A DNA stretch of 64,000 nucleotides from the NCBI GenBank assembly GCA_021822495.1, contig JAKAQO010000003.1, positions 62,001-126,000 on the forward strand, written 5' to 3'. Shown here one piece after another: positions 6,627 to 63,301 of this stretch. Made by a program: the position numbers and the translations under genes. This DNA is from a bacterium. GTDB taxonomy: Bacteria; Elusimicrobiota; Elusimicrobia; UBA1565; UBA9628. Position 1 is the first letter of the stretch. Every line of letters begins with the position of its first letter. Below the pieces are notes generated by a model that was given only the letters and a program-made list of their open reading frames with translations, made no database searches and was not told where the DNA came from.

Positions 6627-6670
6627 AATATAGCAAAGAGACCTCACTCCGTCCTGGGTCTAAAGGCCTA
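6627..6670 (-). promoter_or_regulatory. GGCC-box promoter of the HEAGH-protein gene
   Basis: On the minus strand: box TAGGCC-TTTA-GACCCA (6670 down to 6655), 30 nt from its centre to TATATT (6632-6627), then 7 nt to the ATG at 6619. No -35 hexamer is evident, as expected for an activator site centred near -42. Confidence 0.6.
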
Positions 6671-6676
6671 GAACTT

Positions 6677-8131
6677 CTAGGACCTCTGTCTTCGCTCAAA
6701 AATCCCAACGGTTTCGACGTGGGAGGTTTGCGGAAATAAATCCACGGGCTGAACGGAATGAAGAGAAAAGCCCTCTCGGCACAAAAGAGAAGCGTCTCGG
6801 CTAAAAGTCGCCACATCGCAGGAGATGTAGACGATCTTAGCAATCGGCAGGCGACCCAAGGCCTTGGGCAGATGAGGGGCAAGGCCCGTTCGCGGAGGAT
6901 CGCACAAAACGGCGGAACCCGCCTTGATTTCTCGTCCGATTCGAGAAAGGACCGCTTCGGATTTTCCGGCTAAAAACCGGACGCGGTTGATTTTGTTTAA
7001 GCGCGCGTTTTCCCAGGCATTAGCCACTGCTTGGGGATTTTCCTCAACCCCAATGACCTTTTCCGCCGCCTGAGACGCCCACAAGCTCGTTGTTCCCACC
7101 CCACAATAAAGATCCACGACCAAAGGAAGACGTCCCCCTTCGGCAAGGCCCTCAACCGCCGTGCGGTAGAGAATTTCCGCAGCCGGAGTATTGACCTGGA
7201 GGAAAGAACCCGCCGAGACCTTAAAAGCGAACGGGCCAATTTTTTCCGTTAATGTTTCCTGACCCCAAAGTTTTTTCCACTTCCGCCCTAAAATGACCGA
7301 GGTCTTAAGTGGCTGGACATTTTGATGGATACCGACGATCTCAGGAAACTCCTGGATGAGAGAATCAAGAACCAGCCCTTTGGGAAAATAATCGCTTCGC
7401 GTAATAAAAGCGACTAGGGCTTTTCCCTCATGATTTGAGCGAATGAGAAGATGTCTCAGCCAGCCGTTTCCCGAAGTTTCGTCATAAATCGGCCAATCTC
7501 CCTTCTGGGCCAAGGCCTTAACCCGCAAAGCGATGCGGACCGAAAGATCGGACTGCACCGGACAATCAGAGAAATCAACGATACGGTGGCTTTGCGTCTC
7601 ATAAAAGCCGCAAATAATTTTCCCTTCTTTTTTCCCAAAGGGAATCTGAACTTTATTGCGATATTTCCAAATCAGGGGAGAAGCGATAGTTTCCTTGACC
7701 ACCGGACTTTTAAACCCGCCGATTTTTTTGAGGGTATCCGCCACCAGTTTTCTCTTTTCAACAAGCTGTATGGAATATCCCAAATGTTGCCAATTACATC
7801 CTCCGCAAGCGCCGGTTTTTCGGCTTTCGGAAAAATAAAGAGAACAGGCAGGGCTTATGCGACCTGAACCCGAGGAGAGAATTTCAAGTAGTTTGCCGCG
7901 CGCGAAATTTTTCTTTAATTCGGTAATTTCGATTTGGACCCGGTCTCCCGCCACGGCAAAAGGAACAAAAATAATGGGGCCTGTTTTCCCCTCGGGAACG
8001 GCAAGACCTGCGCCTTCAACAGCTAAGCCTTTGACTGACGCCGTCAGTTTTTGGCCTAAAGTGAGCGAAGGAGCGAAATTCTTTTCAGCTTGAATCGTAG
8101 GACTACCGTCCGCGCTTAAGGAGAGAATCAA
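6677..8131 (-). CDS. rlmD: 23S rRNA (uracil-1939-C5)-methyltransferase, RumA type
   Basis: A 484-residue SAM-dependent methyltransferase. An N-terminal TRAM domain (about 25-90) is followed by an iron-sulphur cluster site: one Cys in PACSLYF and then CGGC before NWQHL. The SAM pocket is DLYCGVGTTSLWA, the catalytic region reads CDPPRTGL, and the nucleophile motif is VYISCDVATFSRD. These match RlmD-type enzymes better than RlmCD or TrmA, though close paralogues are hard to split. The apparent TTG start at 8131 overlaps the response-regulator gene by 29 bases, so the start is uncertain; no good ATG is seen before the TRAM domain. Confidence 0.9.
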   Translation of the reverse strand: MILSLSADGSPTIQAEKNFAPSLTLGQKLTASVKGLAVEGAGLAVPEGKTGPIIFVPFAVAGDRVQIEITELKKNFARGKLLEILSSGSGRISPACSLYFSESRKTGACGGCNWQHLGYSIQLVEKRKLVADTLKKIGGFKSPVVKETIASPLIWKYRNKVQIPFGKKEGKIICGFYETQSHRIVDFSDCPVQSDLSVRIALRVKALAQKGDWPIYDETSGNGWLRHLLIRSNHEGKALVAFITRSDYFPKGLVLDSLIQEFPEIVGIHQNVQPLKTSVILGRKWKKLWGQETLTEKIGPFAFKVSAGSFLQVNTPAAEILYRTAVEGLAEGGRLPLVVDLYCGVGTTSLWASQAAEKVIGVEENPQAVANAWENARLNKINRVRFLAGKSEAVLSRIGREIKAGSAVLCDPPRTGLAPHLPKALGRLPIAKIVYISCDVATFSRDASLLCREGFSLHSVQPVDLFPQTSHVETVGIFERRQRS

Positions 8132-8627
8132 TTTCCGTCCACAAGTTTTCCATCGTGATGGGCTTTGAGAGAAAAATGGAGGCTCCGGCTAAAAGACCCT
8201 CGATTTGATCGCGCGGATCGTTATAGCGAAAAGAAGCCGACAAAAGAACCAGGGGAATGTTTTGAAAACCGTCCATCCGCCGAATCAAGCGGCACAAATC
8301 AAAGCCGTGAATGTCGGGCAAGCGAACATCCACGATAATGACCGCGGGGCGGGAAAGCTGAAGCTCTTTTAAAGCCTCAACCCCGGAAGCCGCGCTTTTA
8401 GCCTCAATGCCGCGCAAGGACATCACATCCAAAAAGGTCTCGCGGAAATGAGCGTCGTCATCAATAAGATAGACAAATAACTTTTTTGAGGAGAGGGCGC
8501 GGATGGGCTTTAATTTGCCCAAGGACTTCGGAAGTTCTCTTGCTACTTCCCCTTGAAAAACGCGGTCCTGGCGCGAGAAAGTCTCCGGCCCTGCCGCCTC
8601 TTTTGATTCTAACTCCATCACGTTCAT
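8103..8627 (-). CDS. Single-domain response regulator (receiver)
   Basis: A 174-residue protein. The first 55-60 residues are polar with no domain; the rest is a CheY-like receiver. Acidic pocket IDDDAHF, phospho-acceptor Asp in IIVDVRLPDIHG, conserved Ser in LLSASF, and Lys in FLSKPI are all present. No DNA-binding or enzymatic output domain follows, so it must act through a partner, and no kinase gene is nearby. The ATG at 8627 lies 6 nt after TATAAT; an in-frame extension to 8744 would translate a conserved hairpin and the promoter and is rejected. It overlaps the start of rlmD. Confidence 0.88.
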   Translation of the reverse strand: MNVMELESKEAAGPETFSRQDRVFQGEVARELPKSLGKLKPIRALSSKKLFVYLIDDDAHFRETFLDVMSLRGIEAKSAASGVEALKELQLSRPAVIIVDVRLPDIHGFDLCRLIRRMDGFQNIPLVLLSASFRYNDPRDQIEGLLAGASIFLSKPITMENLWTEIDSLLKRGR

Positions 8628-8633
8628 GCTTCT

Positions 8634-8677
8634 ATTATATCCTGATTTAAAAAATTCCCTATAGGCCAAAAGTCCTA
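8634..8677 (-). promoter_or_regulatory. GGCC-box promoter of the response-regulator gene
   Basis: On the minus strand: box TAGGAC-TTTT-GGCCTA (8677 down to 8662), 30 nt from centre to a perfect TATAAT (8639-8634), 6 nt, then ATG at 8627. Further upstream, GGGACTAGGTCC (8694-8705) may be a second site. Confidence 0.7.
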
Positions 8678-8701
8678 GATTTGGCCGGAAAAAGGACCTA
8701 G

Positions 8702-8737
8702 TCCCTTTCCTCAATAATCTTAAGGTAGGGACAATGC
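8702..8737 (-). other. Conserved hairpin element, copy 1
   Basis: On the minus strand the 30-nt core runs from TCCCTACCTTAAG to GAGGAAAGGGA and is preceded by GCATTG. It folds as TCCCT/AGGGA around CCT/AGG. It matches 25 of 30 positions of the copy at 16459-16488. It sits between a minus-strand stop and the next minus-strand promoter. No U-tract follows, so it is not a typical terminator. Confidence 0.6.
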
Positions 8738-8766
8738 CGCCCAAGAATTATGAGGAAGAGGCATAG

Positions 8767-8792
8767 AAAAAAAAGGGGACTGTCCCCTTTTT
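8767..8792. repeat. GGGGACTGTCCCC palindrome at the protease gene end
   Basis: AAAAAAAA-GGGGACTGTCCCC-TTTTT. The protease stop codon TAA overlaps its edge. GC stem plus flanking A and T runs could end transcription in both directions. Confidence 0.85.
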
Positions 8793-9906
8793 ACTGGTCA
8801 AGATTTTGGGCGTGACGAAGAAATTCCTGGTGCATTTCCTGTTCGAGATTATCCATCGCGTGCATCTTTTTGAGAAGAAGTTGCCGACGATTGTAGGGCC
8901 GGCTTTCGGTAATCGTCACATGGCGGACAGGAGCTTCTTGGGAAGGCGAAGCTTTTGCGACAACTGGAGGCGAGACAACGGGAGGCTTGGGAGAAACAGG
9001 AATTTTTTTGGTCACCAGGGCCGACTCAGACATGGAATTTATTTGGGAAGACGAAGGCGGCTGATTTGCGCCAGTCTGAGTCGAAGCCGCGGGCTGAACA
9101 TTATTCTGGGCCACTTCCGCGGGTTGAACGGCGGAACCTAAAGGGACGCTCACAGGCGCGGCATAGGCGATATCCATTCCGGCATTGGCGTTGAGCCAAG
9201 CTTTAATGACGTCCGATCGTATCGCGAAGTTAACCGCGGTAATGGCGAGTCCATCCGGGGCTCTGCGCGCCATCATCGTATTCATCCCTACGATATCGGC
9301 GTTCGCATTCAGAAGCGGCCCACCGGAATTTCCGCGGTTAATCGAGGCGTCGGTCTGATAACCATAACGGCCCTTGACTCCACCGAGATTAGCGATGACG
9401 GCGCTGATAATTCCCGTCGTCAACGTCCACAGGCCTCCGTCTTCGGGGTCTCCAATCGCGGCCACGGGATCGCCGACAGAAACGCTGTTGGGATTGGCTA
9501 AAGATAAAACCGGGCGTCCGGATGCGGGACGGTCCAGTTTCAAAAGCGCCAAATCAAGCGAGCGATCATAAAAAACTACCTGCGCGCGAATGGCGTGGTT
9601 GAGGTCTTTGTCTGGGTTTCCCGTCATGTGTTTGGGCTTAAGATAAACGCGAACCAAGGGCCACGGGCGCCCTGTTGATTTATGAATCACAACATGGGCA
9701 TTGGTCAGAACCTTGTTTCCAGCGATGAGGCTCCCGCTTCCCAGTTCTCCGTTCCCGCCTTCCGGTCCGCTACAAATCACCGTTACAACCGCCGGCGAGG
9801 CCTTGTCATAAATTTTTCTGGGCGAAAATTTTCCCTCATGGGCCAAGGCCAAATTAGGCGCCCACAAAAAACCTATCATTCCAATCGCCAGTATTTTTTT
9901 CATCAT
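8791..9906 (-). CDS. Exported trypsin-like (S1C/DegP-type) serine protease without PDZ
   Basis: A 371-residue protein with a signal peptide (MMKKILAIGMIGFLW, cleavage after LALA). The catalytic triad is visible: His71 in LTNAHVV, Asp118 in RSLDLALLKL and Ser194 in INRGNSGGPLL. The protease domain ends near residue 235. Instead of PDZ domains there is a Pro/Ser/Gln-rich linker of about 90 residues and a short helical, charged tail. It would act in the periplasm or on the surface. A PDZ-less form lacks the usual substrate-recognition and oligomer-control module, so DegP-like quality control is not assured. Transcribed from a good TTGACA-17-TACATT promoter. Confidence 0.88.
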   Translation of the reverse strand: MMKKILAIGMIGFLWAPNLALAHEGKFSPRKIYDKASPAVVTVICSGPEGGNGELGSGSLIAGNKVLTNAHVVIHKSTGRPWPLVRVYLKPKHMTGNPDKDLNHAIRAQVVFYDRSLDLALLKLDRPASGRPVLSLANPNSVSVGDPVAAIGDPEDGGLWTLTTGIISAVIANLGGVKGRYGYQTDASINRGNSGGPLLNANADIVGMNTMMARRAPDGLAITAVNFAIRSDVIKAWLNANAGMDIAYAAPVSVPLGSAVQPAEVAQNNVQPAASTQTGANQPPSSSQINSMSESALVTKKIPVSPKPPVVSPPVVAKASPSQEAPVRHVTITESRPYNRRQLLLKKMHAMDNLEQEMHQEFLRHAQNLDQ

Positions 9907-9923
9907 AAAGCGCCTCTACCCAC

Positions 9924-9952
9924 AATGTATCAGGAGATTTTCATCCTGTCAA
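9924..9952 (-). promoter_or_regulatory. Consensus-type promoter of the protease gene
   Basis: On the minus strand: TTGACA (9952-9947), 17-nt spacer, TACATT (9929-9924), then an 18-nt stretch to the ATG at 9906. The -35 overlaps the end of the S1/P1 nuclease gene. Confidence 0.7.
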
Positions 9953-10935
9953 CGCCCCCAGGAAGACACCGCCGGAAAAACCAATTTTTGAATCGCGGGG
10001 AGTTTCCCCTTTAAAGAAATGGGCTCAAAAGAACTAGGCGCGGGAACCGGGGCCGGGGCAAAAGCCTTGTTTAAAAGAGCGGCCAGGCGCACACCAGCTT
10101 TTTCAAGGCGCAAATAGGCGACCGGACGCATTTCATCCTCATAAGCGGAAGTCACCACGTCGCCGCCCGGCGCGTGATAATCGGGATAGATTTGATTTTG
10201 GGCGATGGCGTATCCTTCCAAAGCCATATCGGCTAAACTGGCGTTCGCCCAAATAGCGGCGTCTTGATCGGAGATTTCTCCCTCCAGGGTTTGGGCCAAA
10301 CTCTCCGGGTCCATATTCTTGGCCTCGGAAGTCGGTTCAATGAGATCATCCCACAAGGCATGAAGGTTTGTCGCCGCGCCTCCGGAGGCAAAAGTCATTT
10401 TTTTGAGATTTCCGCCGCGATCGCTGGTTCCATCCGGCAGAATTTCAGTCGCATTATGAAGCGGCTGGTGAAGGTCTCCCACCAAATGCGTGACAAACAT
10501 CAAGGCCTGTTGTTTTTGATCCAAAGTGGCGGAAGCGTCCGATAGAATTTGAAGATGAGATTCAATTTGATCGATGGAACAATTGCCATCCGGGCCGCAA
10601 GCCGAAGTAATCGCGCCGGAAGGGTCTTGACTATTGATAGGAATATCAATAAAGTGCCAGCTCGCGGTTTCCGGCATGGGCGGAAGGCTAAAATTTCCGC
10701 AAGAGACGTCTTGTTTGGCGTATTTAATCCAGTCCGCGCAGTTGGCCACCTGTTCTAAATTTCCATCGGGACCTAAAATGGCGGCGACTTGATTTTTAGC
10801 CGCGGGACTGAGGCGCGAATCGGCGATCAAGGCGACGACATCATGCCCCACCGGTCCCCAGGCCCAAAGTTTTGATTGGAAAAGAAGCGAAACCGCAATT
10901 AAAAAGGAAGTCATCACCGCGCGCCGCGTGTTCAT
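9949..10935 (-). CDS. Exported S1/P1-family zinc nuclease
   Basis: A 328-residue protein. The signal peptide ends at KLWA so that the mature protein begins with Trp (WGPVGHDVV), as in P1 nuclease where the N-terminal Trp binds zinc. Other zinc-ligand blocks are NCADWIK, WHFIDIPIN, FVTHLVGDLHQPLHNA, DRGGNL and LHALWDDLI. The family cleaves single-stranded nucleic acids and removes 3'-phosphates; here it may serve phosphate or nucleotide scavenging outside the cytoplasm. The ATG at 10935 has a GGAGG site 7 nt before it and a TATACT -10 at 10958-10953. An upstream in-frame start at 10962 is less likely. Confidence 0.88.
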   Translation of the reverse strand: MNTRRAVMTSFLIAVSLLFQSKLWAWGPVGHDVVALIADSRLSPAAKNQVAAILGPDGNLEQVANCADWIKYAKQDVSCGNFSLPPMPETASWHFIDIPINSQDPSGAITSACGPDGNCSIDQIESHLQILSDASATLDQKQQALMFVTHLVGDLHQPLHNATEILPDGTSDRGGNLKKMTFASGGAATNLHALWDDLIEPTSEAKNMDPESLAQTLEGEISDQDAAIWANASLADMALEGYAIAQNQIYPDYHAPGGDVVTSAYEDEMRPVAYLRLEKAGVRLAALLNKAFAPAPVPAPSSFEPISLKGKLPAIQKLVFPAVSSWGR

Positions 10936-11001
10936 GGTCTGCCTCCGAGGCCAGTATATCAAGAGCTTCTAAGCCCTATTTTATCACAGCAACGCGTTTT
11001 T

Positions 11002-12732: not shown

Positions 12733-12774
12733 GCTTAAAATTTAACAGAAGCGTGTTACAAATTTAATTCAAGG

Positions 12775-12800
12775 AAAAAGGGGACAGTCCCCTTTTTTTT
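12775..12800. repeat. GGGGACAGTCCCC palindrome between barrel and coiled-coil genes
   Basis: AAAAAGGGGACAGTCCCCTTTTTTTT in a gap between two minus-strand genes, just after the barrel-protein stop in transcript order; terminator-like placement. Confidence 0.85.
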
Positions 12801-12813
12801 CGCATGCAGTCTT

Positions 12814-13782: not shown

Positions 13783-13843
13783 AAACAATAATCCCCTCCT
13801 GTTAAGAATATCTCCGTCGGAATCTGAAAAATTCTAGCACATT

Positions 13844-15556: not shown

Positions 15557-15573
15557 GGAAAATTCCTCTTTAA

Positions 15574-16347: not shown

Positions 16348-16414
16348 TTGTTATTGAATTCTTTTCTTACGAATTCCAGACATCTCAAGAAAACCACGTT
16401 CCCAGCTTAGAAGA

Positions 16415-16458
16415 AGTATAGAGAAAAGGAAAAGAGGCTTCTATGACCTAGATCATAG
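16415..16458 (-). promoter_or_regulatory. cox promoter with Crp/Fnr-like palindrome at -41.5
   Basis: On the minus strand: CTATGATCTAGGTCATAG (16458-16441), 29 nt from its centre to TATACT (16420-16415). The centre falls at about -41.5, the classic class II activator position. The TGA-YCTAGR-TCA core resembles Fnr/Dnr-type sites (TTGAT-N4-ATCAA), suggesting oxygen- or NO-linked control of the oxidase. The regulator is not identified. Confidence 0.55.
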
Positions 16459-16494
16459 TCCCGATCCTCAATAACCATAAGGTCGGGAGAATGC
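16459..16494 (-). other. Conserved hairpin element, copy 2
   Basis: Second copy of the 30-nt hairpin, immediately upstream of the cox palindrome and right after the MFS stop. The stem reads TCCCGA/TCGGGA. Compared with copy 1, stem positions 5 and 26 change together (T-A to G-C), which supports a folded RNA or single-stranded DNA. Confidence 0.6.
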
Positions 16495-16496
16495 GC

Positions 16497-18326
16497 CTAG
16501 CGCGGGGAGCGAAAGGCAAAAAGAGCCGCAAGGCCCAAAATCGTCACCAAGATATTGGCGCCGAGAATGATATGGGGCATGGTCAAAAATGCGGCCCAGG
16601 CGGGAAAAATCTGGCCAAGGCCAGCCGCGATAAAGATAGGCAAGGTTCCCAAAATACTGGCCGTCATCATCCATTTGGAAAGATTTTTAAGTTTTGATTG
16701 CGGAAGCTTTTCCTGGTAAAGACTCATCCATTTGTTCGAGTTAATCATCACCATCCCGCCCATGACTCCCGCAAGAACCATGGACAAGGCGGGAATGGGA
16801 ATGAGCGAACTCGCCCATAAAAACGCCAAGGCTGAACCAATTCCGGCCAAGGTCCAAGGCCTTTCGCCTTTTTTTGGCAAAAGAGCCGCAGTCGCCAAGA
16901 ACCCGAAAACCCAGCTCCCGAAATCATAAGCGCCAATGATATTTCCCGTCATCTTGTCATCATGCCAGATTCCCATGGAAATCGCGGCGGCAAAGACCGA
17001 ATAGAGAGAAAAATGAATAAACCTAAAGAAGACAAATGGGACATAACTGCGCCAAGACAAACCTTCTTGTGGCGTTTGTTCGATGGATACAGAAGTCGCG
17101 GAAGCAGTCGGTTTATGAAGATTTAAAGAAGCGTAAAACAAAGCCGCGATCAGAAAGAATGAGCTTGAAATTCCCATCACCACGCTTCCGCCAAAGGCAT
17201 GAAGAAGCGGGACCGAAATCATCGCCATTGAAATAGAGCTGAGCTCAATCCATTGATAGGCATAGTTAAGCCCAAATTCACGCTGAGATCTATCTGAAAT
17301 TAAAAGTGGCGGAATTAAATTTTCGGTCACCCCTCGTGTTGCGCCGTAAACCAGGCCCGAAAGAGCGGAACCCAGAAGAAAAGCTCCAAAAAGCGCGGCG
17401 TGAGGCAAATGAAAGAAAAGCGCCGCTGGAACAAGCCCCCCGCTTAAGGCGGAGACTATCAACGCGACATTATTAATCGTCTTGGGGCTAAAATGCCCGA
17501 CAAAAAAGGCCCCTGTCCAGGCGCCGGGAATACGTGCGATAAGATTGACTCCAGCCGCGATAATCGCCTGAGAAAGACCGAAGATTTGAGCGGTAAAAAC
17601 CGGCAAAGCCACTGCCTGCATCTCTCCCCCCATCGCGGCAATAGACCAGCCGGGAACATATCTCCATAAAAATGGGGCCGGAAGCTCTTTAATACGTTCA
17701 AGCCACTTAAGTTTCTTTCGCGGGGAAGAATTTTCAGTTCCAAGAGGAATACTTGCGACTGTTTCGCGATCATGCGCATCAGCAATGGACAAAAGGGGAC
17801 TGTCCCCTTTTTCGCCTCCAGGAGAAAGGAAAGGGGACTGTCCCCTTTTTTCTTTTTGCCGGTCAAAGAGGCGATTGAGAACTCCAATAGAGATTTTTCC
17901 TAAACGACGAGGCGCGCCAAGAACCTTGCCGCTAAGTTTCGATAAAAACCGGCGGCTTTGAGAGAGTGGTTTTTCCGGTTTTGAGGCCACCCCCAATTTG
18001 TTTTTGTCACCCCGACTTTCGGCCGCTTTCCAACGAATCAGGGAGCGGCGCTTCCTCGCCGACGCTCGGTCGCCGGAATGACGAAGGCCTGAATCAAAAA
18101 GGGGACTGTCCCCTTTTTCCTGTTGGCGGTCAGAAAGGTGATTAAGGACGTTATTGGGAATCTCCGGGTTTTCCGCTGGGAGAGACGCGGAAACATCAGG
18201 AATCTGAAGAGAAGAAATCTCCGGAGTTTTTTCCGAGAATTCCGCGGCCAAGGCCTGATAGGAAGAGAGGCCGGGGGAAAAAATAAAAAGAATCGCCGTC
18301 AGCGCCCAGGCGGTTATTTTTTTAAT
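16497..18326 (-). CDS. MFS-type membrane protein with signal peptide and repeat-filled N-terminus
   Basis: A 609-residue protein if translation starts at the ATT at 18326, which has a strong AAGGAG site 7 nt before it and opens a typical signal peptide (IKKITAWALTAILFIF, then PGLSSYQALAA). A TTG at 18251 is the first conventional start but would cut the signal. About 190 residues of polar sequence follow, holding three in-frame GGGGACTGTCCCC palindromes and a separate 80-bp repeat. The last 400 residues form about 10-12 membrane helices of a major-facilitator type permease (for example GGLVPAALFFHLPHAALFGA). Substrate unknown. The transcript starts from a GGCC-box promoter. Confidence 0.75.
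   Translation of the reverse strand: MKKITAWALTAILFIFSPGLSSYQALAAEFSEKTPEISSLQIPDVSASLPAENPEIPNNVLNHLSDRQQEKGDSPLFDSGLRHSGDRASARKRRSLIRWKAAESRGDKNKLGVASKPEKPLSQSRRFLSKLSGKVLGAPRRLGKISIGVLNRLFDRQKEKRGQSPFLSPGGEKGDSPLLSIADAHDRETVASIPLGTENSSPRKKLKWLERIKELPAPFLWRYVPGWSIAAMGGEMQAVALPVFTAQIFGLSQAIIAAGVNLIARIPGAWTGAFFVGHFSPKTINNVALIVSALSGGLVPAALFFHLPHAALFGAFLLGSALSGLVYGATRGVTENLIPPLLISDRSQREFGLNYAYQWIELSSISMAMISVPLLHAFGGSVVMGISSSFFLIAALFYASLNLHKPTASATSVSIEQTPQEGLSWRSYVPFVFFRFIHFSLYSVFAAAISMGIWHDDKMTGNIIGAYDFGSWVFGFLATAALLPKKGERPWTLAGIGSALAFLWASSLIPIPALSMVLAGVMGGMVMINSNKWMSLYQEKLPQSKLKNLSKWMMTASILGTLPIFIAAGLGQIFPAWAAFLTMPHIILGANILVTILGLAALFAFRSPR
17791..17812. repeat. Palindrome copy inside the MFS reading frame (1)
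   Basis: AAAAGGGGACTGTCCCCTTTTT, translated on the minus strand as EKGDSPLL. Confidence 0.85.
17831..17851. repeat. Palindrome copy inside the MFS reading frame (2)
   Basis: AAGGGGACTGTCCCCTTTTTT, translated as EKRGQSPF. It reads in a different frame from copies 1 and 3, so different peptides come from the same repeat. Confidence 0.85.
18003..18083. repeat. Second repeat type inside the MFS frame
   Basis: About 80 bp with terminal inverted sequences (GTCATTCCGG and CGGGGTGAC on the minus strand). Translated as HSGDRASARKRRS to AAESRGDK. It does not resemble the MFS family and looks inserted. Confidence 0.6.
18096..18118. repeat. Palindrome copy inside the MFS reading frame (3)
   Basis: AAAAAGGGGACTGTCCCCTTTTT, translated as EKGDSPLF. 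Its upstream flank (VLNHLSDRQQ) is also duplicated before copy 2 (VLNRLFDRQK), so flank and palindrome moved or duplicated together. Confidence 0.85.
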
Positions 18327-18380
18327 GGGAATTCTCCTTATTTAAGCGCTTTCCCTCGCGCCGTTTAATCCGGCTTCCTT

Positions 18381-18424
18381 ATTGTATCCAACAATTTCAG
18401 CGCGCCCAAGGGCCAAAAGGCCTA
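18381..18424 (-). promoter_or_regulatory. GGCC-box promoter of the MFS gene
   Basis: On the minus strand: box TAGGCC-TTTT-GGCCCT (18424-18409), 30 nt from centre to TACAAT (18386-18381), then a leader of about 50 nt ending in AAGGAG before the ATT start. Another GGGTC lies just upstream of the box. Confidence 0.65.
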
Positions 18425-18448
18425 GACCCATTCCGGCAAAAGACCCAG

Positions 18449-18471
18449 AAAAAGGGGACTGTCCCCTTTTT
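18449..18471. repeat. GGGGACTGTCCCC palindrome at the alr 3' end
   Basis: AAAAAGGGGACTGTCCCCTTTTT; the alr stop TGA touches it. Lies between alr and the MFS promoter, again terminator-like. Confidence 0.85.
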
Positions 18472-19544
18472 CAAGAAACGTAAACGCGTGGAATCTGGGG
18501 ATGAGCGGCAGTGCGGCGAACTGGAAGGGTGATGACATCTCCAACCTTGACGCGAGGAACTTGACTGACATCCACAAGCAGATGAGAAATTCCGCATCCC
18601 CCGATAAAAGGCGTTCTGACTTTTCCCATCATGCCCCAATACTCAAAACCGGAGCCCAGACGGATCAGGCGTTCGGCGGGCTCCATCGTAATCCCATCGG
18701 AATACCCCACAAGTAAGGTCGCCACTTTCATATTCCTCGGAGAAACGTAGGCGCTGGCATATCCGACAGATTCCCCGGCGGAAATTGAACGAATATGAAT
18801 AATCCGCGTTTTAAAATGCCAAGGATTTTTAAGCGGAAAAGAGCGCGATTTCGCGGCATTGATTCCGTAGATTAAATTTCCGATTCGCGCGAGATCCATC
18901 CGCCAATGAGGAAAATCCAGAAAAACGGAACTGTTGGCCGCATGGCAAAGAAGACCGGGATAGGTTTTTTTTAAGCGCTCAGCGATGCGGGAAAAATCGC
19001 GAAGTTTTTCCTCCGCCTCAACCGCGTTTTTCCCGGGGATATAATCAATATGAGCGGACAAACCCTCAAGTTTAATTTTTTTAAAGCGCTTCAGATGATG
19101 GATGAATAAATCCAAGTGTCTTGGAGAAATTCCCCAACGCCCCAACCCAAAATCCAAATCCACATGGATGGAAACCGGAGAACTCAGGGAAGCTTTTGCA
19201 TTGAGCGCACGAATTTGATCCAAATGATCGACAGTCGCGGAAGTTTTTAGTTTGACCACCTCTTCCGCCATCTCCGGTAAAATCGGGGCCATCAGACAAA
19301 GAGAACGATTGATTTTTGCGCGCCTTAAATTCCTCGCTTCTTCCAAGTTCAGAACCCCGATATAAGAAACGCCGGCTTTGACCGCTTCACGAGCTACGGG
19401 AATAAGACCGTGCCCGTAAGCGTCGGCTTTTAAAACGGCCATGACCTTGGTTGAACGCCTTGACGCGGCCAAGACCCGATTAAGATTTGAACTAATCGCC
19501 TTTAAATCTATCTCAATCCATTTAAGGAAAAATTTTTCACGCAT
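18471..19544 (-). CDS. alr: Alanine racemase
   Basis: A 357-residue PLP enzyme making D-alanine for peptidoglycan. The PLP lysine is Lys39 in AVLKADAYGHG. The second catalytic block (SVGYASAY) is followed by ATLLVGYSDGI, and a C-terminal beta domain holds GCGISHLLVDVSQV. Length is normal. The ATG at 19544 lies 6 nt after TATAAT, giving a leaderless mRNA, and the gene is divergent from hemC across 40 bases. The last residues RVYVS end at the edge of a palindrome, so the extreme C-terminus may have been trimmed by its insertion. Confidence 0.94.
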   Translation of the reverse strand: MREKFFLKWIEIDLKAISSNLNRVLAASRRSTKVMAVLKADAYGHGLIPVAREAVKAGVSYIGVLNLEEARNLRRAKINRSLCLMAPILPEMAEEVVKLKTSATVDHLDQIRALNAKASLSSPVSIHVDLDFGLGRWGISPRHLDLFIHHLKRFKKIKLEGLSAHIDYIPGKNAVEAEEKLRDFSRIAERLKKTYPGLLCHAANSSVFLDFPHWRMDLARIGNLIYGINAAKSRSFPLKNPWHFKTRIIHIRSISAGESVGYASAYVSPRNMKVATLLVGYSDGITMEPAERLIRLGSGFEYWGMMGKVRTPFIGGCGISHLLVDVSQVPRVKVGDVITLPVRRTAAHPQIPRVYVS

Positions 19545-19584
19545 GAGGCGATTATAGAAAATTAGAATTTTCTACAATGACTGG
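19545..19584. promoter_or_regulatory. Back-to-back leaderless promoters of alr and hemC
   Basis: Only 40 bases separate the start codons. Leftward TATAAT (19556-19551) plus 6 nt to the alr ATG; rightward TACAAT (19573-19578) plus 6 nt to the hemC ATG. The inverted TAGAAAATT/AATTTTCTA between them means any -35 contacts of one promoter overlap the other's -10, so they should compete. Confidence 0.7.
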
Positions 19585-20490
19585 ATGAAGCTCAGAATTG
19601 GGACTCGCGGATCGCCCTTGGCTCTCGCTCAGAGCCGCTGGGTTGAGAGCCGCCTTAAAGAAATCGAACCTTCGCTTGAAACGGAACTCATCGTCATCAA
19701 AACTTCCGGAGATTTGTTCCAGAACCAATCTCCCAAGGAGGCGCATGAGGCTTCTCTATCTCCGCAAGGGACCAAGGGTCTGTTTGTCAAGGAAATCGAA
19801 GAGAGTCTTTTAAAAGAAGACATTGATCTGGCGGTCCACAGCGCAAAGGATATGCCCGCTCAAATTCCAAACGGGCTTCATATTCTCGCCTATCCCAAGC
19901 GGGAGAACCCGCAAGACGTTTTTATCGGACGCGGCGGAATTCTCTGGAAAGAAATAAAGCCGGGACAAACCATCGGGACCTCTTCTCTTCGGCGGCAGAT
20001 TCAGCTTAAAATGGCTTTTCCGGAAGTTAACGCCGTCCCGCTTCGCGGCAACGTAGATACGCGCATAAAGAAACTGGAAGAAAAATCCCTGGACGGAATT
20101 ATTCTGGCCGCCGCCGGACTTAAAAGACTAGGGCGCGAAATTCCGTCCGCCCATCCTATTGATCTTGACGCAATGGTTCCCGCTCCCGGTCAGGGAGCCC
20201 TGGCCATTGAATCCCGCGTTCAAGACGATCTTCGGCTTTTTTCCCAAATTCTCGATCACGGGCCGACTCGAATCGCAGTGGAATGGGAGCGAGAATTTCT
20301 AAAGACGCTGGGCGGCGGATGCTCCACCCCCCTGGGCGCCTTTGCCGAAATAAAAACGGAAGGGCTTGAAATGCGCGTTTTTTGGTCAAAAGAAGACGGA
20401 AGTCGCGCCCGACATCTTAAAGCCCTCTGCAAGGACACCAGCCTCAGATCATCTTTCATCGAAGATTTGGCGCGCAAAGTCACAGCCTAG
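19585..20490 (+). CDS. hemC: Hydroxymethylbilane synthase (porphobilinogen deaminase)
   Basis: A 301-residue enzyme that joins four porphobilinogens for tetrapyrrole synthesis. Motifs: RIGTRGSPLALAQ (4-16), DLAVHSAKDMP (81-91), GTSSLRRQ (131-138), PLRGNVDTR (152-160) and the cofactor-binding Cys246 in GGGCSTPLG. All key residues are present. The next tetrapyrrole enzyme, hemD, is encoded elsewhere in the window on the other strand. Followed after 18 bases by mfd, probably in the same transcript. Confidence 0.96.
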   Translation: MKLRIGTRGSPLALAQSRWVESRLKEIEPSLETELIVIKTSGDLFQNQSPKEAHEASLSPQGTKGLFVKEIEESLLKEDIDLAVHSAKDMPAQIPNGLHILAYPKRENPQDVFIGRGGILWKEIKPGQTIGTSSLRRQIQLKMAFPEVNAVPLRGNVDTRIKKLEEKSLDGIILAAAGLKRLGREIPSAHPIDLDAMVPAPGQGALAIESRVQDDLRLFSQILDHGPTRIAVEWEREFLKTLGGGCSTPLGAFAEIKTEGLEMRVFWSKEDGSRARHLKALCKDTSLRSSFIEDLARKVTA

Positions 20491-20508
20491 GACTCCGTGA
20501 TAAAATAA

Positions 20509-23607: not shown

Positions 23608-23621
23608 TAGGATAGGCATTA

Positions 23622-50482: not shown

Positions 50483-50539
50483 AACAGCCTGAAAATATCC
50501 GCTAAAAAAACGTAGAATAACGGCAGGGAGGTAAGTCCA

Positions 50540-51625: not shown

Positions 51626-51626
51626 A

Positions 51627-56612: not shown

Positions 56613-56618
56613 CGCTCT

Positions 56619-56662
56619 TAGGCCCTCCCAGAGAAAGAAGCATAGGTCGGTTTTGCTACAAT
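56619..56662 (+). promoter_or_regulatory. Half GGCC-box promoter of ahcY
   Basis: TAGGCC (56619-56624) lies in the distal half-site position, with the centre 30 nt before TACAAT (56657-56662). The proximal half is degenerate (CAGAGA). A leader with AAAGGAGAAA precedes the ATG at 56691. Confidence 0.45.
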
Positions 56663-56690
56663 AGGGTGATTAGAAACAAAGGAGAAATTT

Positions 56691-58004
56691 ATGCCAACCG
56701 CCGCCATGGACTACAAAGTTAAAGATATCACGCTTGCCGACTGGGGAAGAAAAGAAATCGCTTTAGCCGAGGCGGAAATGCCCGGACTTATGGCTTTACG
56801 GGCGGAATTTCGCGGAAAAAAGCCGCTCCAAGGCGCCCGAATCGCGGGATGCCTTCACATGACGATTGAAACCGCGGTCTTGATTGAAACCTTGATTCAA
56901 CTGGGGGCGGAAGTCCGCTGGAGTTCCTGCAACATTTTCTCAACCCAAGACCACGCCGCCGCTGCCATCGCCCAAGCCGGGATTCCCGTCTTTGCTTGGA
57001 AAGGAGAGACCCTTGAGGAATACGATTGGTGCATCGAGCAAACTCTGCAATTTGAAGGAAATCTCGGCCCCAATATTTTGCTTGATGACGGCGGGGATCT
57101 CACGAACATGATTCACGACAAGTATCCGGCTCTTTTAAAAGATATCGTTGGCTTGTCCGAGGAAACGACAACTGGAGTCCATCGCCTTTACCAACGGGAA
57201 GCCCAAGGAAAACTCAAGGTTCCGGCTATCAACGTTAATGATTCCTGCACTAAATCCAAATTCGACAATCTCTACGGCTGCCGCGAATCACTACTTGACG
57301 GAATTAAACGCGCAACTGACGTCATGATCGCCGGAAAAATCGCGGTCGTCTGCGGATACGGGGATGTCGGCAAGGGTTGCGCGCAATCTTTTAAAGGAAT
57401 GGGCGCCCGGGTTTTTGTCACTGAAATCGATCCTATTACCGCTCTTCAAGCCTCGATGGAAGGCGTTTCCGTCATTACGATGGATGAAGCCGCCTCCATC
57501 GGAGATATTTTCGTCACCGCCACGGGTTGCTGTGATGTCATTACTCGCAAACACATGGACATGATGAAATCTCACGCCATTGTCTGCAACATCGGCCACT
57601 TTGACCTTGAAATTGACGTCGCTTCCCTCATGAATGACAAAAAAATCCGCAGAACGACTATTAAACCCCAGGTCGATCAATTCACCTGGCCGGACGGCAA
57701 GGTTCTGATTGTTTTGGCGGAAGGACGTCTGGTCAACCTTGGTTGCGCCTCCGGACACCCGTCCTTTGTCATGAGCATTTCTTTTTCCAACCAAGTTCTC
57801 GCCCAATTGGAACTTTGGACCAACCGCGAAACCAAAAAATATGAAAACAAGGTTTACACCTTGCCCAAACTTTTGGATGAGCGAGTCGCTCGAATTCATT
57901 TAGACAAACTTGGCGCTCACTTGACGCAGCTCAACCAAAAGCAAGCGGAATATTTGGGGATTAATCCCAAAGGACCCTATAAAGCGGAAAATTACCGCTA
58001 CTAA
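56691..58004 (+). CDS. ahcY: Adenosylhomocysteinase
   Basis: A 437-residue NAD enzyme that splits S-adenosylhomocysteine to homocysteine and adenosine. Family blocks: [57 protein letters not shown] loop [12 protein letters not shown] (about 222), [10 protein letters not shown], and C-terminal [20 protein letters not shown] ending in YRY. Complete. Followed after 3 bases by the desaturase. Confidence 0.98.
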
Positions 58005-58007
58005 AAC

Positions 58008-59204: not shown

Positions 59205-59225
59205 AAAATTCAAGGCAAATTTTGC

Positions 59226-59231
59226 TACCAT
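59226..59231 (+). promoter_or_regulatory. -10 of the barrel-protein gene
   Basis: TACCAT at 59226-59231, 6 nt before the ATG at 59238; no ribosome site. Confidence 0.45.
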
Positions 59232-59237
59232 TTCGCC

Positions 59238-59972
59238 ATGAGAATAAAACTAAGGCTTTCCGTCTTGTCGCTGGTCCTCTTAATACCGTTATCGTCTTGG
59301 GCGGGACCCTTTAACCAATTTTCTTCCCTAATCCAATCCCAAGCCTTAAAACCCTTCGCTCTCGATATTGGAGGCGTCTTGGGCGGCGCCGAGTTTGATC
59401 CCACTCCCCCGACCGGATTTCCCGGCGCTTCCGTCCAAATGGTCGGCGTCATGCAAACGACCCCTAATTCCAACGATATCGTGCTTAAAGATAACGGCGT
59501 CAAGGAATTTGGTCTTCCCATGCTTCAGGCGACTGTCGGGCTTCCCTTTCACTTGGACGTCGTCGCGCATGGCTTTAGTTACGATGGAGCGACGGTATTA
59601 GGCGGCGGACTCCGCTACGGACTTTTTACGCCTTCGCGCCTTCTTCTTTTTCTGCCAACCGTTGAACTCTCGGCCATGGGAGACGTCATTAATGACAGCG
59701 CATTTTCAATGACCCATTTATCCGCGGATGCCAGCGCCATTTGGAGGCTCCCCATCATTCAACCTTTTCTCGGAGTAGGCTTTGATGACACAAAAGCCAC
59801 CATTGATTCAGCCCAACTTGTCGGGCTCAACGGCCTTTCCGCCACGGCCACGGGCTCCCGCTTAGCCGCCGGAATCGATTTTACCGCGATTCCTTTTGTG
59901 ACTCTCCGCGCGGCCTACATGGTTTTCCACGGAATATCAGGCGGAGAACTCACCGCCGGCGTCGGATTTTAA
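59238..59972 (+). CDS. Exported protein, probable small outer-membrane barrel
   Basis: A 244-residue protein with a signal peptide (LSVLSLVLLIPLSSWA). Glycine-rich amphipathic strands (FHLDVVAHGFSYDGATVLGGGLRYGLF, RLAAGIDFTAIPFVTLRAAYMVF) end with VGF, a terminal Phe typical of barrels. No family recognised. Its stop overlaps the stop of the convergent 739-residue protein gene by four bases. Confidence 0.6.
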   Translation: MRIKLRLSVLSLVLLIPLSSWAGPFNQFSSLIQSQALKPFALDIGGVLGGAEFDPTPPTGFPGASVQMVGVMQTTPNSNDIVLKDNGVKEFGLPMLQATVGLPFHLDVVAHGFSYDGATVLGGGLRYGLFTPSRLLLFLPTVELSAMGDVINDSAFSMTHLSADASAIWRLPIIQPFLGVGFDDTKATIDSAQLVGLNGLSATATGSRLAAGIDFTAIPFVTLRAAYMVFHGISGGELTAGVGF

Positions 59973-62188
59973 TCATTCAGCGGAGTCGGCGGCATAAACG
60001 CGCGCTCAACTGCGCTCACCGCACGCAAGGACGCGGCGCTTAGAAGTCCCTGATTAAAAAGATAACGTTTGGTCGGGTTTGATGAATCCGTTTTTTTCTT
60101 ATCTACATGGAAAAAAAGGTCCGCCGCCACCCCGTTTTGAGGCGCAAGCCTTAAAAGAATACGCATCACCCCTCCGTAACCCGAATACGACTCAAACCAA
60201 TGAGAACTCCCGTCCAAGACATTGAGAAATTCCTTGGATTGCTGCTGCGGAGAAAGGCTTCTGATTTCTTTTAAATCAGAAATTAAAAGATGAACCTGAT
60301 GAGCAAGTCCCCTAGCCCAGGACAAGACCATCTCCAATCTTTTCCGAGTCGGATCGAATAAATTGAGTTCATCAAGGTGCCGGGCAAACGCGCGTTTAAA
60401 ATGGAGCGCCCCGTCTTCTGAAATCCGCGAATATTTAAGAGCATAGTCAAAAACCGCCCGGTCGCTCCCGGACAGAGACAATTGAAACGCGCGAAAAACC
60501 GCGGATGCCGAGGCGGACACAATTTGATGAATCGCCTGCGAAGTCAATATAACGCTTAACTCCACATATCCCTTATGTTCGGAACCCTGGGTTAATTTTT
60601 CAAGTTCTTCAGGAATTTTTGTTTCCGTCCCGACTTTCTCCCCAAGAGAGCCGATTGAGCCCATCAAGGAATTAATGCGGGACAGTTCCTGGTGGATGTC
60701 TCCAAGCCTCAAAATACCGGTTTCCCGGTTATAGACAACCAGCTGTTCGGCTTTTGTTTTCGTGCGAGCGTTGGGTTTAAGAAGAATCATGGACTGCACG
60801 CTTTGACTTCGATTATGCCGAAGAGACGAACCCATAATTGGCGGCTTAAAAAATCCCCAGTTTGATTGTCTCTGGGACTTATAAGAATAAAACTCAAATC
60901 CTTTCGGCGCGACAATCACGTAATGATCCGCGTTGTGAGCGACGGAACCGCTGTAATTGAAAAGAAACGGAATGGAAAAATTGAGAGTTTTAAGACTGTC
61001 TTTATAACTGTCCAACCCCGACAAGGATTCCGGCACGCGCAGATTCTGAGTATGTTTTTGCCTTAAAGCCTGAAGCGTCTTCTGAACGTCTTTGTCTTCC
61101 GCACCATTTTTCCATGTCGTCATTAAATCCTTCATTGCGGCCAAAACGCCCAAATCTCCCTTTAACAATTTCGCCAAATTTCGCATTTCTTCTTGATTGT
61201 CGGGGTCCAAGCGGTATTCCAGGAAGATTTGTCGGCCGCGCTGGCCTGACATTAAAACCGCAATCTGAGCCGCAAGATAATCATCCACCTCCCGGGTCAA
61301 CAGTTTTAAGACGGGGTTAGAAATAATATTGGGAAGCATTCCTGAAAGCAGAGACTCAATTCCTGGAGTTCCTATATCAGTCGCCGGAATGGGGCCGATG
61401 ACGGCTCCGCCAGAAGCGTTGACCGCGCTAAACTGGTCGAAGTGAATTTTAAGACGCAAATCATGCTGGCCTTTTCTAAAAAGAGTCACGGTTGGATCGG
61501 CAGTTTTAGAAAGTCCAATCGCGAAATACGTCGAAAAAGGGGCGACAGCCAGGGGAGTCGTCACGACCTGGGCCGCATCCAAGGGTTCAAAAGAGATTTG
61601 ATAGACGAGGGGAATTTCCCATAATTCCCCTACTTCCATTTTTGAAATTCTCCGGGCGTTCAAGGGAAGAACTGTTTTAAAATCCAAGACATTGAGCAGC
61701 CGCTTCATTTGACTGCAGGAGTTGGCCGTATGAAGAGGCCTTGTGACAATCGTTTGCCCGTCAACCGAAACTCCTCCATAAACCCCCAGGGCCCTTTGAG
61801 TCGCGCCCGCAATTTTTTTAAGAACGGTTTGGGCATATCCAGTCTGGAATTTAACTTCAAGAGTGTCGTTTAAGGCCAGGCTTCCATCTGGATAGCGAAG
61901 GAACTGTCTTGTCCCTGAGAAAGTTCCGCCCACAAGCGCGCTTCCCCGGCCCATCTGGGCGAAAAAATCCTGACTCAACGGAACAATTAGTGGAAGGCGG
62001 TCGCACCATTGATCCATTCCCTGATTCTGGAATTGATTGCCGAAAGTAATCCGGTCGACCGTCGCCGGATTATACTTTGAATAGCCTCCTGCGGGATCGG
62101 CAGGAACCCAGCCGGAAGCGGAAGAGTCCGCATAAACAGAAGGAGAAATGAGCATTCCCCCCCAAAAAAGCCAGATTAATAATTTCAT
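59969..62188 (-). CDS. Large exported protein of unknown function
   Basis: A 739-residue protein with a signal peptide (LLIWLFWGGMLISPSVYA). No domain is recognised. It has mixed alpha/beta content, a strand-rich first half (about 25-300) and a helical second half with segments such as QVHLLISDLKEIRSL. One Cys pair (Cys42 and one near 160) could form a disulphide in the periplasm. Its ATG overlaps the stop of the kinase-like gene (ATGA), so the two are translated together and probably work together; it could be that kinase's substrate or anchor. Confidence 0.7.
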   Translation of the reverse strand: MKLLIWLFWGGMLISPSVYADSSASGWVPADPAGGYSKYNPATVDRITFGNQFQNQGMDQWCDRLPLIVPLSQDFFAQMGRGSALVGGTFSGTRQFLRYPDGSLALNDTLEVKFQTGYAQTVLKKIAGATQRALGVYGGVSVDGQTIVTRPLHTANSCSQMKRLLNVLDFKTVLPLNARRISKMEVGELWEIPLVYQISFEPLDAAQVVTTPLAVAPFSTYFAIGLSKTADPTVTLFRKGQHDLRLKIHFDQFSAVNASGGAVIGPIPATDIGTPGIESLLSGMLPNIISNPVLKLLTREVDDYLAAQIAVLMSGQRGRQIFLEYRLDPDNQEEMRNLAKLLKGDLGVLAAMKDLMTTWKNGAEDKDVQKTLQALRQKHTQNLRVPESLSGLDSYKDSLKTLNFSIPFLFNYSGSVAHNADHYVIVAPKGFEFYSYKSQRQSNWGFFKPPIMGSSLRHNRSQSVQSMILLKPNARTKTKAEQLVVYNRETGILRLGDIHQELSRINSLMGSIGSLGEKVGTETKIPEELEKLTQGSEHKGYVELSVILTSQAIHQIVSASASAVFRAFQLSLSGSDRAVFDYALKYSRISEDGALHFKRAFARHLDELNLFDPTRKRLEMVLSWARGLAHQVHLLISDLKEIRSLSPQQQSKEFLNVLDGSSHWFESYSGYGGVMRILLRLAPQNGVAADLFFHVDKKKTDSSNPTKRYLFNQGLLSAASLRAVSAVERAFMPPTPLND

Positions 62189-63252
62189 TTGGATAAGAAT
62201 AAGGAAATTTTATTATCTTCCTCACGGCGCGCCAAGGCTAATTGATATTTTGCGCCTGCGGCATTGAGAAGCTTGTTGCAATCTTGAATTAAGTCCTCAA
62301 TATCAACAAATGGACTGGCAAAAAGACTTCTTGCCGCTAAAAGCCCGGCGTCAATGATATAGGCCTGCGGTTCGGGGTTTGAGGCCGTATATCCCACCAT
62401 GACATTGCTGGGAGTCAAATCCATAATTGAAAAATGACTGTTCAAAAATTGATTCAACATTTCACGCAAGAGCTTTAAGTCTTGAATCCCAAATTCTTTC
62501 TGCCTGATTTTCGCTTCCAGAGTCTCTCCATGGACTCGCTCGGAGACGATGTAGGGAATTCCCTGAATCAGTCTGGTATCCACGGGATGAGGCGCAAGCC
62601 CCAATTTGGACAATTTTTCAAGGTTTTGAAACTCTGGGTGTTCGTAAAACGCGACATTCCCATAAATTCTGCTGCCGTGGATGATTTTAACCACCCAATC
62701 CGAGTTATTCGGGTGTTCAAAAACCCGTCCAAACGAACCTTCTCCCATCAGACGCGCTTTTTTTCCGGAAAGCCACAGGGCTCCCTCGGAATCATATTTC
62801 CAAGTCTGCGCCTGTCCGTCAAATAAAGCGTTTCCATTAACTTTTGGACTATCCGCGATTTGGGATTTAGAAGAGGGAGTATCCTGAAGATTCAGCAAAG
62901 AATGGTCCGCGGAAACAACATACGGAAGAGAAACTCCTGAGATACGGGCGGATTGAGTCTGGCGTTTTGGGGAACTAACTTTTGCGGCTTTCTGGGTAAA
63001 GGCCTCGCTTGGAAAATGAATTTCCGGCCTCAAAACCTGGTTTTGAAAATCAGGATTTTTTTCTAAGTCCTGATCCAAAAACTGAGAGGTCGTCGGCGCA
63101 ACTTCGGGGGAAGGAAGATTAAAATTAAAAGAAGGGGATTCCGATGGAATGCGCTCGGATGACTCAATAGCCCACAGCGAACGGCCCATTCCCAAAGCGG
63201 CCGCCAGCGCCCAGAAGCCTAAATTACGGATTAATTTCCGCAAAAATATCAC
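62185..63252 (-). CDS. Exported protein-kinase-fold protein
   Basis: A 355-residue protein. The first 29 residues are a signal peptide or signal anchor (KLIRNLGFWALAAALGMG, then SLWA). A low-complexity stretch (30-165) leads to a compact kinase fold: glycine loop GEGSFGRVF (170-178), Lys189 in WVVKII, catalytic loop MDLTPSN (277-283, in place of HRDLKPxN) and DAG (301-303, in place of DFG). All key ATP/Mg residues are therefore present. A kinase domain on the far side of the membrane is unusual, since ATP is scarce there. GTG start 6 nt after TATAAT; GGCC-box promoter. Confidence 0.75.
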   Translation of the reverse strand: MIFLRKLIRNLGFWALAAALGMGRSLWAIESSERIPSESPSFNFNLPSPEVAPTTSQFLDQDLEKNPDFQNQVLRPEIHFPSEAFTQKAAKVSSPKRQTQSARISGVSLPYVVSADHSLLNLQDTPSSKSQIADSPKVNGNALFDGQAQTWKYDSEGALWLSGKKARLMGEGSFGRVFEHPNNSDWVVKIIHGSRIYGNVAFYEHPEFQNLEKLSKLGLAPHPVDTRLIQGIPYIVSERVHGETLEAKIRQKEFGIQDLKLLREMLNQFLNSHFSIMDLTPSNVMVGYTASNPEPQAYIIDAGLLAARSLFASPFVDIEDLIQDCNKLLNAAGAKYQLALARREEDNKISLFLSK

Positions 63253-63258
63253 AATTAA

Positions 63259-63301
63259 ATTATAAAGGAAATTACTTTTTTAGGCTTGGGCCTAAAGGCC
63301 C
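63259..63301 (-). promoter_or_regulatory. GGCC-box promoter of the exported-kinase operon
   Basis: On the minus strand: perfect GGGCC-TTTA-GGCCC (63301-63288), 30 nt from centre to TATAAT (63264-63259), 6 nt, then GTG at 63252. The upstream GGTAGGCCC may be an extra half-site. Confidence 0.7.

What the first reader, a model, noticed from the sequence alone, without database searches (positions are those of the whole stretch)
6627..63301. A promoter class with a GGCC box at one fixed distance from the -10
Four minus-strand promoters (6627-6670, 8634-8677, 18381-18424, 63259-63301) carry TAGGCC-N4-GGCCTA-like palindromes. In each, exactly 30 nt separate the box centre from the first base of a TATAAT-like hexamer, so the centre is near -42. 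A fifth site upstream of ahcY (56619-56662) keeps the distal half TAGGCC at the same distance. Matching spacing in unrelated genes (HEAGH protein, receiver, MFS, exported kinase, ahcY) is hard to get by chance and suits a class II activator of Crp/Fnr-like geometry. I do not know this motif as a described regulon.
Basis: partly seen in the sequence, partly recalled or inferred. Interest (0 to 1): 0.78.

Follow-up and report, generated by a model that had tools for sequence, protein, structure and literature searches.

The report
Phylum-wide DosR-like promoter class, Elusimicrobiota
The promoters spotted in this stretch belong to a large set of genes, spread across the little-studied bacterial phylum Elusimicrobiota, that carry the same DNA switch at exactly the same place and mostly make exported proteins such as proteases; the switch looks like the one read by the tuberculosis dormancy regulator DosR, and a matching regulator gene occurs in nearly all the same genomes.

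Summary
Four of the five sites are real. In the window's own genome (2.2 Mb Elusimicrobiota MAG) 24 of 49 boxes, chosen without looking at the -10, have TANNNT exactly 23 nt downstream (background 1.3%, p about 2e-32). The full element is distal box (near -66), proximal box TAGGCCTTTNGGCCC (centre -42.5), TTG at -35, 17 bp, TANNNT; often the ATG follows after 6 nt (leaderless). It recurs across the phylum, reaching about 20-37 sites per genome in several lineages (reversed-pattern control 0-3). Targets are overwhelmingly exported proteins, many of them peptidases and other hydrolases. The ahcY site is a half-box and is not supported. A Crp/Fnr regulator is excluded as the common factor: motif-rich rumen Elusimicrobiaceae have none; OmpR is also absent or nearly so there, and AraC is rare. 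One NarL/FixJ response regulator fits: it co-occurs with the motif over 97 genomes (p 2e-11), has the three DNA-contact residues of DosR, and the box matches the published weak DosR consensus at 13/13 positions. Binding, transcription starts and signal are untested. New member of a known kind.

The parts
6655..6670 (-). Proximal box TAGGCCTTTAGACCCA, centre 30 nt before the -10
   Evidence: conserved in four relatives as TAGGCCTTTAGGCCC + TATATT (L124, L148, L156, L157)
6678..6685 (-). Distal half-box AGGTCCTA (inverted form)
   Evidence: sequence; same position in relatives L124, L148
6627..6632 (-). -10 hexamer TATATT; ATG 7 nt further (6619)
5708..6619 (-). Target: exported HEAGH-motif protein, about 303 aa, no Pfam family
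8662..8677 (-). Proximal box TAGGACTTTTGGCCTA
   Evidence: near-identical promoter in G004 C22:116221
8687..8700 (-). Distal box TAGGTCCTTTTTCC, 23 nt upstream of the proximal box
   Evidence: sequence
8634..8639 (-). -10 hexamer TATAAT; ATG exactly 6 nt further (8627), leaderless
8103..8627 (-). Target: receiver-only protein, 174 aa (Response_reg at residues 52-166); one of the few targets without a signal peptide
18409..18424 (-). Proximal box TAGGCCTTTTGGCCCT
   Evidence: conserved in L108 and L159
18434..18447 (-). Distal box TGGGTCTTTTGCCG, 23 nt upstream
   Evidence: sequence
18381..18386 (-). -10 hexamer TACAAT; here followed by a leader with Shine-Dalgarno AAGGAG
16497..18326 (-). Target: signal-peptide-bearing MFS-like protein, apparent ATT start codon
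63287..63302 (-). Proximal box TGGGCCTTTAGGCCCA (perfect palindrome)
63312..63325 (-). Distal box TAGGCCCTTTGCCG, 23 nt upstream
   Evidence: sequence
63259..63264 (-). -10 hexamer TATAAT; GTG 6 nt further (63252), leaderless
62185..63252 (-). Target: protein with signal-peptide-like N-terminus (missed by the numeric cut-off, judged by eye) and a kinase-like domain (YrbL-PhoP_reg)
56619..56662 (+). Claimed fifth site upstream of ahcY (gene 56691-58004 +): half-box only, not accepted
   Evidence: TAGGCC present, GGCC half absent; Shine-Dalgarno AAAGGAG before ATG

Best explanation
These are sigma-70-type promoters with weak -35 elements, activated by a NarL/FixJ-family response regulator related to DosR/DevR. 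Shown from sequence: a near-palindromic box TRGGNCYTTNGNCCY centred at -42.5, abutting a TTG-like -35; a second box about 23-24 bp upstream; a -10 at fixed distance; in many genes a start codon 6-7 nt after the -10; targets that are mostly exported proteins; and, in nearly the same genomes, a receiver+GerE regulator whose recognition helix carries the Lys, Lys and Asn by which DosR reads its box. Inferred: a phosphorylated dimer binds each box, two dimers bind side by side cooperatively, the proximal one contacts RNA polymerase at -35 (class II activation), and the promoter starts a transcript at or near the start codon. The regulon is a secretome switch: exported peptidases, murein hydrolases, other hydrolases and many exported proteins of unknown function. 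The signal is unknown; in Elusimicrobiaceae the regulator gene stands next to a receiver-histidine-kinase hybrid.
For: Spacing 24/49, p about 2e-32. Phylum scan: of 83 listed stretches I set aside 8 with non-Elusimicrobiota titles; the rest are labelled Elusimicrobiota or 'bacterium' (some of which match genomes of the window's genus). Motif against regulator over 97 genomes: both 64, regulator only 9, motif only 3, neither 21; Fisher 2e-11; families f6, f7, f8, f9, f13, f14 lack both. GerE in 22 of 22 genomes tested. OmpR/PhoB absent in 7 of 8 tested f12 genomes and in termite genome G099 yet common in motif-free genomes; AraC found in only 5 of 29. Regulator matches VraR (2e-39) and DevR (6e-33) over receiver and GerE domains; helix K-T-V/I-K-N invariant = DosR Lys179/Lys182/Asn183, which contact bases (PMC5861037, PMC4082495). 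Box matches weak DosR consensus RRGNCYWNNGNMM 13/13 and the stringent one 12-15/15 (PMC6448022). DevR promoters also have closely packed boxes with the proximal one overlapping -35 (PMC3029386). Signal-peptide N-termini: 26/31 against 13/46 of other window genes, p 2e-6; 59/70 in the phylum set.
Against: No binding, expression or transcription-start data exist. Co-occurrence is confounded by shared ancestry (families, not genomes, are the real units). LysR, TetR, XRE, MarR, LytTR, MerR and other families were not tested. Nine genomes have the regulator but few motif copies (f5 above all); G016 and G048 have the motif but no strong regulator hit (both fragmented, 86 and 79% complete). K-T-V-K-N is common in GerE domains, so it supports the family more than a unique specificity. 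No box was found beside the regulator genes themselves, so no autoregulation is seen.
Confidence: 0.72

Rival explanations
1. A Crp/Fnr-family activator binds the box at -42.
For: Centre near -42 and the N4 dyad fit Fnr-like geometry; the window's genome has three Crp/Fnr genes.
Against: Motif-bearing Elusimicrobiaceae (G090, G092, G100, G101) have no Crp/Fnr HTH over cut-off; the box resembles neither TGTGA-N6-TCACA nor TTGAT-N4-ATCAA (consensus from general knowledge).
Confidence: 0.04
2. Another, untested transcription-factor family (for example LysR, TetR, XRE, MarR, LytTR) is the regulator, and the response regulator merely shares its phylogenetic range.
For: Only Crp/Fnr, OmpR, AraC and GerE families were tested; shared ancestry can produce the co-occurrence.
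Against: Box layout, two-box architecture and recognition helix all point to the DosR type.
Confidence: 0.18
3. The box is a repressor operator overlapping -35, not an activator site.
For: The proximal box abuts the -35.
Against: -35 elements are poor (only TTG-like), spacing is rigid to the base and a second box lies upstream, as in activated promoters; an operator would tolerate positional drift.
Confidence: 0.08
4. The box is read by RNA polymerase itself (a special sigma factor with an extended -35).
For: Rigid spacing to the -10 and a single motif in many promoters.
Against: The -10 and TTG/17-bp/TANNNT layout are ordinary sigma-70; the 16-bp dyad with a second dyad upstream is not a sigma element pattern.
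Confidence: 0.04

Closest known systems
DosR/DevR regulon of Mycobacterium tuberculosis (NarL/FixJ response regulator)
   Same: Box layout (weak consensus RRGNCYWNNGNMM met at every position), paired closely packed boxes, proximal box overlapping -35, regulator with receiver plus GerE domain and the same three base-contacting residues.
   Different: Different phylum; four of the eight box variants compared have C where the stringent DosR consensus has A or keep other letters there (A or T in the rest); targets are exported hydrolases and unknown exported proteins rather than dormancy genes; no heme sensor kinase identified; many transcripts appear leaderless.
VraR/LiaR response regulators of Gram-positive bacteria
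   Same: Closest solved full-length sequences; cell-envelope theme.
   Different: Helix reads K-T-V-K-T-H, not K-T-V-K-N-H; no DNA-motif match was tested.
NreC (TAGGG-N4-CCCTA) and ComA (TTGCGG-N4-CCGCAA) sites (from memory, a lead only)
   Same: Dyad with N4 centre read by NarL/FixJ proteins.
   Different: Half-site sequence differs; not compared by computation here.

Membership tests
DosR/DevR-type (NarL/FixJ) class II promoter | Box matching the published DosR consensus | tested here: met
   All eight box variants checked match the weak consensus 13/13 and the stringent one 12-15/15 (consensus from PMC6448022)
DosR/DevR-type (NarL/FixJ) class II promoter | Two or more closely packed boxes, proximal one overlapping -35 | tested here: met
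   Second box in 30/32 own promoters; box ends at -36/-35 next to TTG; DevR layout in PMC3029386
DosR/DevR-type (NarL/FixJ) class II promoter | Response regulator with receiver and GerE domains and DNA-contact residues Lys, Lys, Asn | tested here: met
   Pfam, alignment A1, residues from PMC5861037 and PMC4082495
DosR/DevR-type (NarL/FixJ) class II promoter | Regulator present wherever the motif is | tested here: met
   64 of 67 motif-positive genomes; two exceptions (G016, G048) are fragmented or incomplete, the third (G052) has only a partial hit
DosR/DevR-type (NarL/FixJ) class II promoter | Direct, phosphorylation-dependent binding and activation | not testable with these tools
   needs protein and expression work
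DosR regulon proper (hypoxia/NO/CO dormancy) | Heme sensor kinase DosS/DosT and dormancy gene content | not tested
   No sensor was assigned; target content is different
Crp/Fnr class II promoters | Crp/Fnr regulator encoded in every genome with the motif | tested here: not met
   Motif-bearing genomes without any Crp/Fnr over cut-off
OmpR/PhoB-regulated promoters | OmpR-type regulator encoded in every genome with the motif | tested here: not met
   Zero in G064, G072, G085, G088, G090, G092, G096, G099
AraC-regulated promoters | AraC-type regulator encoded in every genome with the motif | tested here: not met
   None in the three own-genus genomes tested and in most f12
Leaderless mRNAs | Start codon 5-7 nt after the -10, no Shine-Dalgarno | tested here: inconclusive
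   ATG/GTG at 6 nt in 17 of 31 own sites with TANNNT, and at 6-7 nt in 31 of 70 phylum sites; transcription starts not mapped

The most novel reading that the evidence does not exclude
A single two-component system, inherited across most Elusimicrobiota families, commands the phylum's export programme: dozens of leaderless genes for exported proteases, murein hydrolases and even exported AAA+ and kinase-like proteins, switched together, as would suit a predatory or host-attached way of life.
Probability: 0.3. Interest if true: 0.8.

Novelty: new member of a known kind. Interest (0 to 1): 0.64.

Why it matters
I found no paper in the library searched that describes a regulon of Elusimicrobiota. 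This gives a motif, a promoter architecture, a target list and a named candidate regulator that can be tested in a cultured member, and it offers a handle on what these bacteria export and when. It also suggests DosR-type promoter logic working far outside Actinobacteria on a different gene set.

Tried and rejected
Crp/Fnr: rejected, absent in motif-bearing genomes. OmpR and AraC: rejected on the same ground; AraC had looked attractive because TAGGCCTTTTGGCCC resembles an asymmetric AraC half-site (recalled from memory). Leaderlessness as the mark of this class: rejected, since about a quarter of other window genes also show TANNNT about 6 nt before the start. Autoregulation of the regulator genes: no box found near them. 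The ahcY half-site: rejected. Paper searches for a described motif or regulon gave nothing relevant. Palindrome-only statistics in the window were uninformative.

Full report
WHAT IS THERE. The four minus-strand promoters are real and at the stated coordinates. Each has a 16-bp near-palindrome TRGGCC-N4-GGCCYA whose centre is 30 nt before a TANNNT hexamer. The symmetric pattern alone is no more frequent in the window than chance. The oriented core TAGGCCTTTNGGCCC and the fixed distance are what carry the signal.

GENOME-WIDE TEST. The window lies in a 2.2-Mb draft genome (G000:C6:62001-126000). With up to 3 mismatches, box+N23+TANNNT occurs 56 times against 18 for the reversed pattern; with up to 2, 37 against 2. 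From 49 distinct core boxes chosen without looking at the -10, 24 have TANNNT exactly 23 nt after GGCCC; the rate at other offsets is 1.3%, so p is about 2e-32.

FULL ANATOMY. A logo from 58 non-redundant phylum sites shows flanking positions that were not used to select the sites: T/A, T/G, G at -35 to -33 directly after GGCCC, 17 bp before the -10, A-rich sequence after the -10, and ATG at +1 in about half. A second box sits upstream: in the own genome 30 of 32 promoters have one (4.6 after shuffling), as a direct copy starting 23 or 24 nt upstream (21 sites) or as an inverted copy (9 sites). So the order is distal box, proximal box, -35, -10, start codon. The start codon is 6 nt after the hexamer in 17 of 31 own sites with TANNNT and 6-7 nt after it in 31 of 70 phylum sites. 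Leaderless-looking genes are common in this genome generally, so this is a background habit, not a mark of the class.

DISTRIBUTION. An exact-match scan of 84,980 named genomes found 83 stretches; I set aside eight as belonging to other phyla by their titles, and the remainder are titled Elusimicrobiota or simply 'bacterium', from groundwater, rumen and termite guts among others. All five genomes of the own genus have 7-9 exact hits and the reversed control none. With 3 mismatches, 17 further genomes have 8-59 hits, in most of them well above the 1-15 of the control. Within the class, families f6, f7, f8, f9, f13 and f14 have none above control.

TARGETS. In the own genome 26 of 31 targets begin with a signal-peptide-like N-terminus by a simple hydropathy rule, against 13 of 46 other window genes (Fisher p 2e-6); two more are signal-like by eye. 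In the phylum set 59 of 70 do. Pfam hits: peptidases M1, M3, C1-like, C92, S8 and C39-like, a Rce1-like protein, FtsH-like AAA with M41, a ClpB-like AAA protein, two SLT transglycosylases, glycoside hydrolase 15, a PLD domain, a SLOG/LOG domain, an MFS-like protein and a kinase-like domain; many have no family. Two non-exported targets are regulatory: the receiver-only protein of this window and a PAS-GGDEF protein. In other families of the phylum, targets include trypsin-like proteases, a murein amidase, a metallo-beta-lactamase-fold protein and a ChaN-like protein.

REGULATOR. Genomes G090, G092, G100 and G101, which carry the motif, have no HTH_Crp_2 match over cut-off. OmpR-type regulators are absent from seven of eight tested f12 genomes and from termite-gut genome G099, though abundant in motif-free genomes. 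AraC-type is absent from the own-genus genomes tested. GerE (NarL/FixJ) domains occur in all 22 genomes tested. One subgroup (receiver + GerE, helix [SA][VI]KT[VI]KNHLN) is present in the own genome twice (C4:82821-83564, 247 aa; C11:61321-62037, 238 aa) and once in rumen and termite genomes, there in a row with a receiver-histidine-kinase hybrid. A profile of this subgroup searched over 97 genomes compared with motif counts gives: both 64, regulator only 9, motif only 3, neither 21; Fisher p 2e-11; mean sites 8.5 (control 0.5) with the regulator and 0.8 (control 0.75) without. Shared ancestry inflates the p-value; at family level nine families have regulator and motif (weakly in f5) and six have neither.

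LINK TO DosR. The regulator aligns to VraR and DevR structures over its length. DosR peptide 175-188 is FLAEKTVKNYVSRL, and Lys179, Lys182 and Asn183 make base contacts (PMC5861037; PMC4082495). The same Lys, Lys and Asn are invariant here. The published DosR consensus is GGGACTTNNGNCCCT (stringent) or RRGNCYWNNGNMM (weak) (PMC6448022); all eight box variants tested match the weak form at 13 of 13 and the stringent form at 12-15 of 15 positions, in the same orientation relative to the central TT. A random 16-mer would do the former about once in 500. DevR target promoters have closely packed boxes with the proximal one overlapping -35 (PMC3029386), as here. Caveat: K-T-V-K-N is common in GerE domains.

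MECHANISM. Shown by sequence: element, spacing, second box, -35 remnant, target class, regulator co-occurrence. Inferred: phosphorylated dimers bind both boxes cooperatively and recruit RNA polymerase through contacts at -35 (class II). The signal is unknown. No autoregulatory box was seen.

VERDICT. A real, phylum-scale promoter class, best explained as the regulon of a DosR-like NarL/FixJ response regulator that governs exported proteins. It works like the DosR system; that it is bound by this regulator is inferred (0.72).

Noticed in passing
window 18326 (minus strand) and orthologues in L108, L159: The MFS-like target gene has no ATG/GTG/TTG start near its signal peptide; AAGGAG-N7-ATT (ATC in L159) followed by AAA/AAG-AAA-ATA is kept in three species, suggesting an ATT/ATC start codon as in infC.
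   Followed up: partly
window 4176-4196, 8771-8791, 12776-12796, 17791-17849, 18097-18117, 18450-18470: Many copies of the palindrome AAAAGGGGACAGTCCCCTTTT, 15 matches where none is expected; a dispersed repeat, some copies just upstream of the promoters described here.
   Followed up: no
window 19544-19585: Divergent leaderless-looking genes (alanine racemase and a 301-aa protein) share a palindromic TAGAAAATTnnAATTTTCTA region carrying both -10s.
   Followed up: no
L211:1371-3989 (-) and L215:11900-14917 (+): ClpB-like and FtsH-like AAA+ proteins with apparent signal peptides and long N-terminal extensions; ATP-dependent machines outside the cytoplasm would be odd.
   Followed up: partly
L213 (G000 C10:3567, 5513, 7300): Three box clusters about 1.9 kb apart with back-to-back inverted boxes; one direction has an 18-bp instead of 17-bp spacer.
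   Followed up: no
L206 and L214: Repeated, near-identical promoter copies with box, a few kb or less apart; in L214 each precedes a near-identical exported protein, so these look like tandem duplications.
   Followed up: no
L239, L241-L247: A second NarL/FixJ regulator (helix SLNT[IV]HVHRNN) in Elusimicrobiaceae; upstream sequence looks like the end of a histidine kinase; not seen in the own genus.
   Followed up: partly
L273-L276: Genes just after the DosR-like regulator in Elusimicrobiaceae and termite genomes encode proteins with RRGQATTEVVLLFP near the N-terminus, which look TadE-like; no Pfam hit for the one tested.
   Followed up: partly
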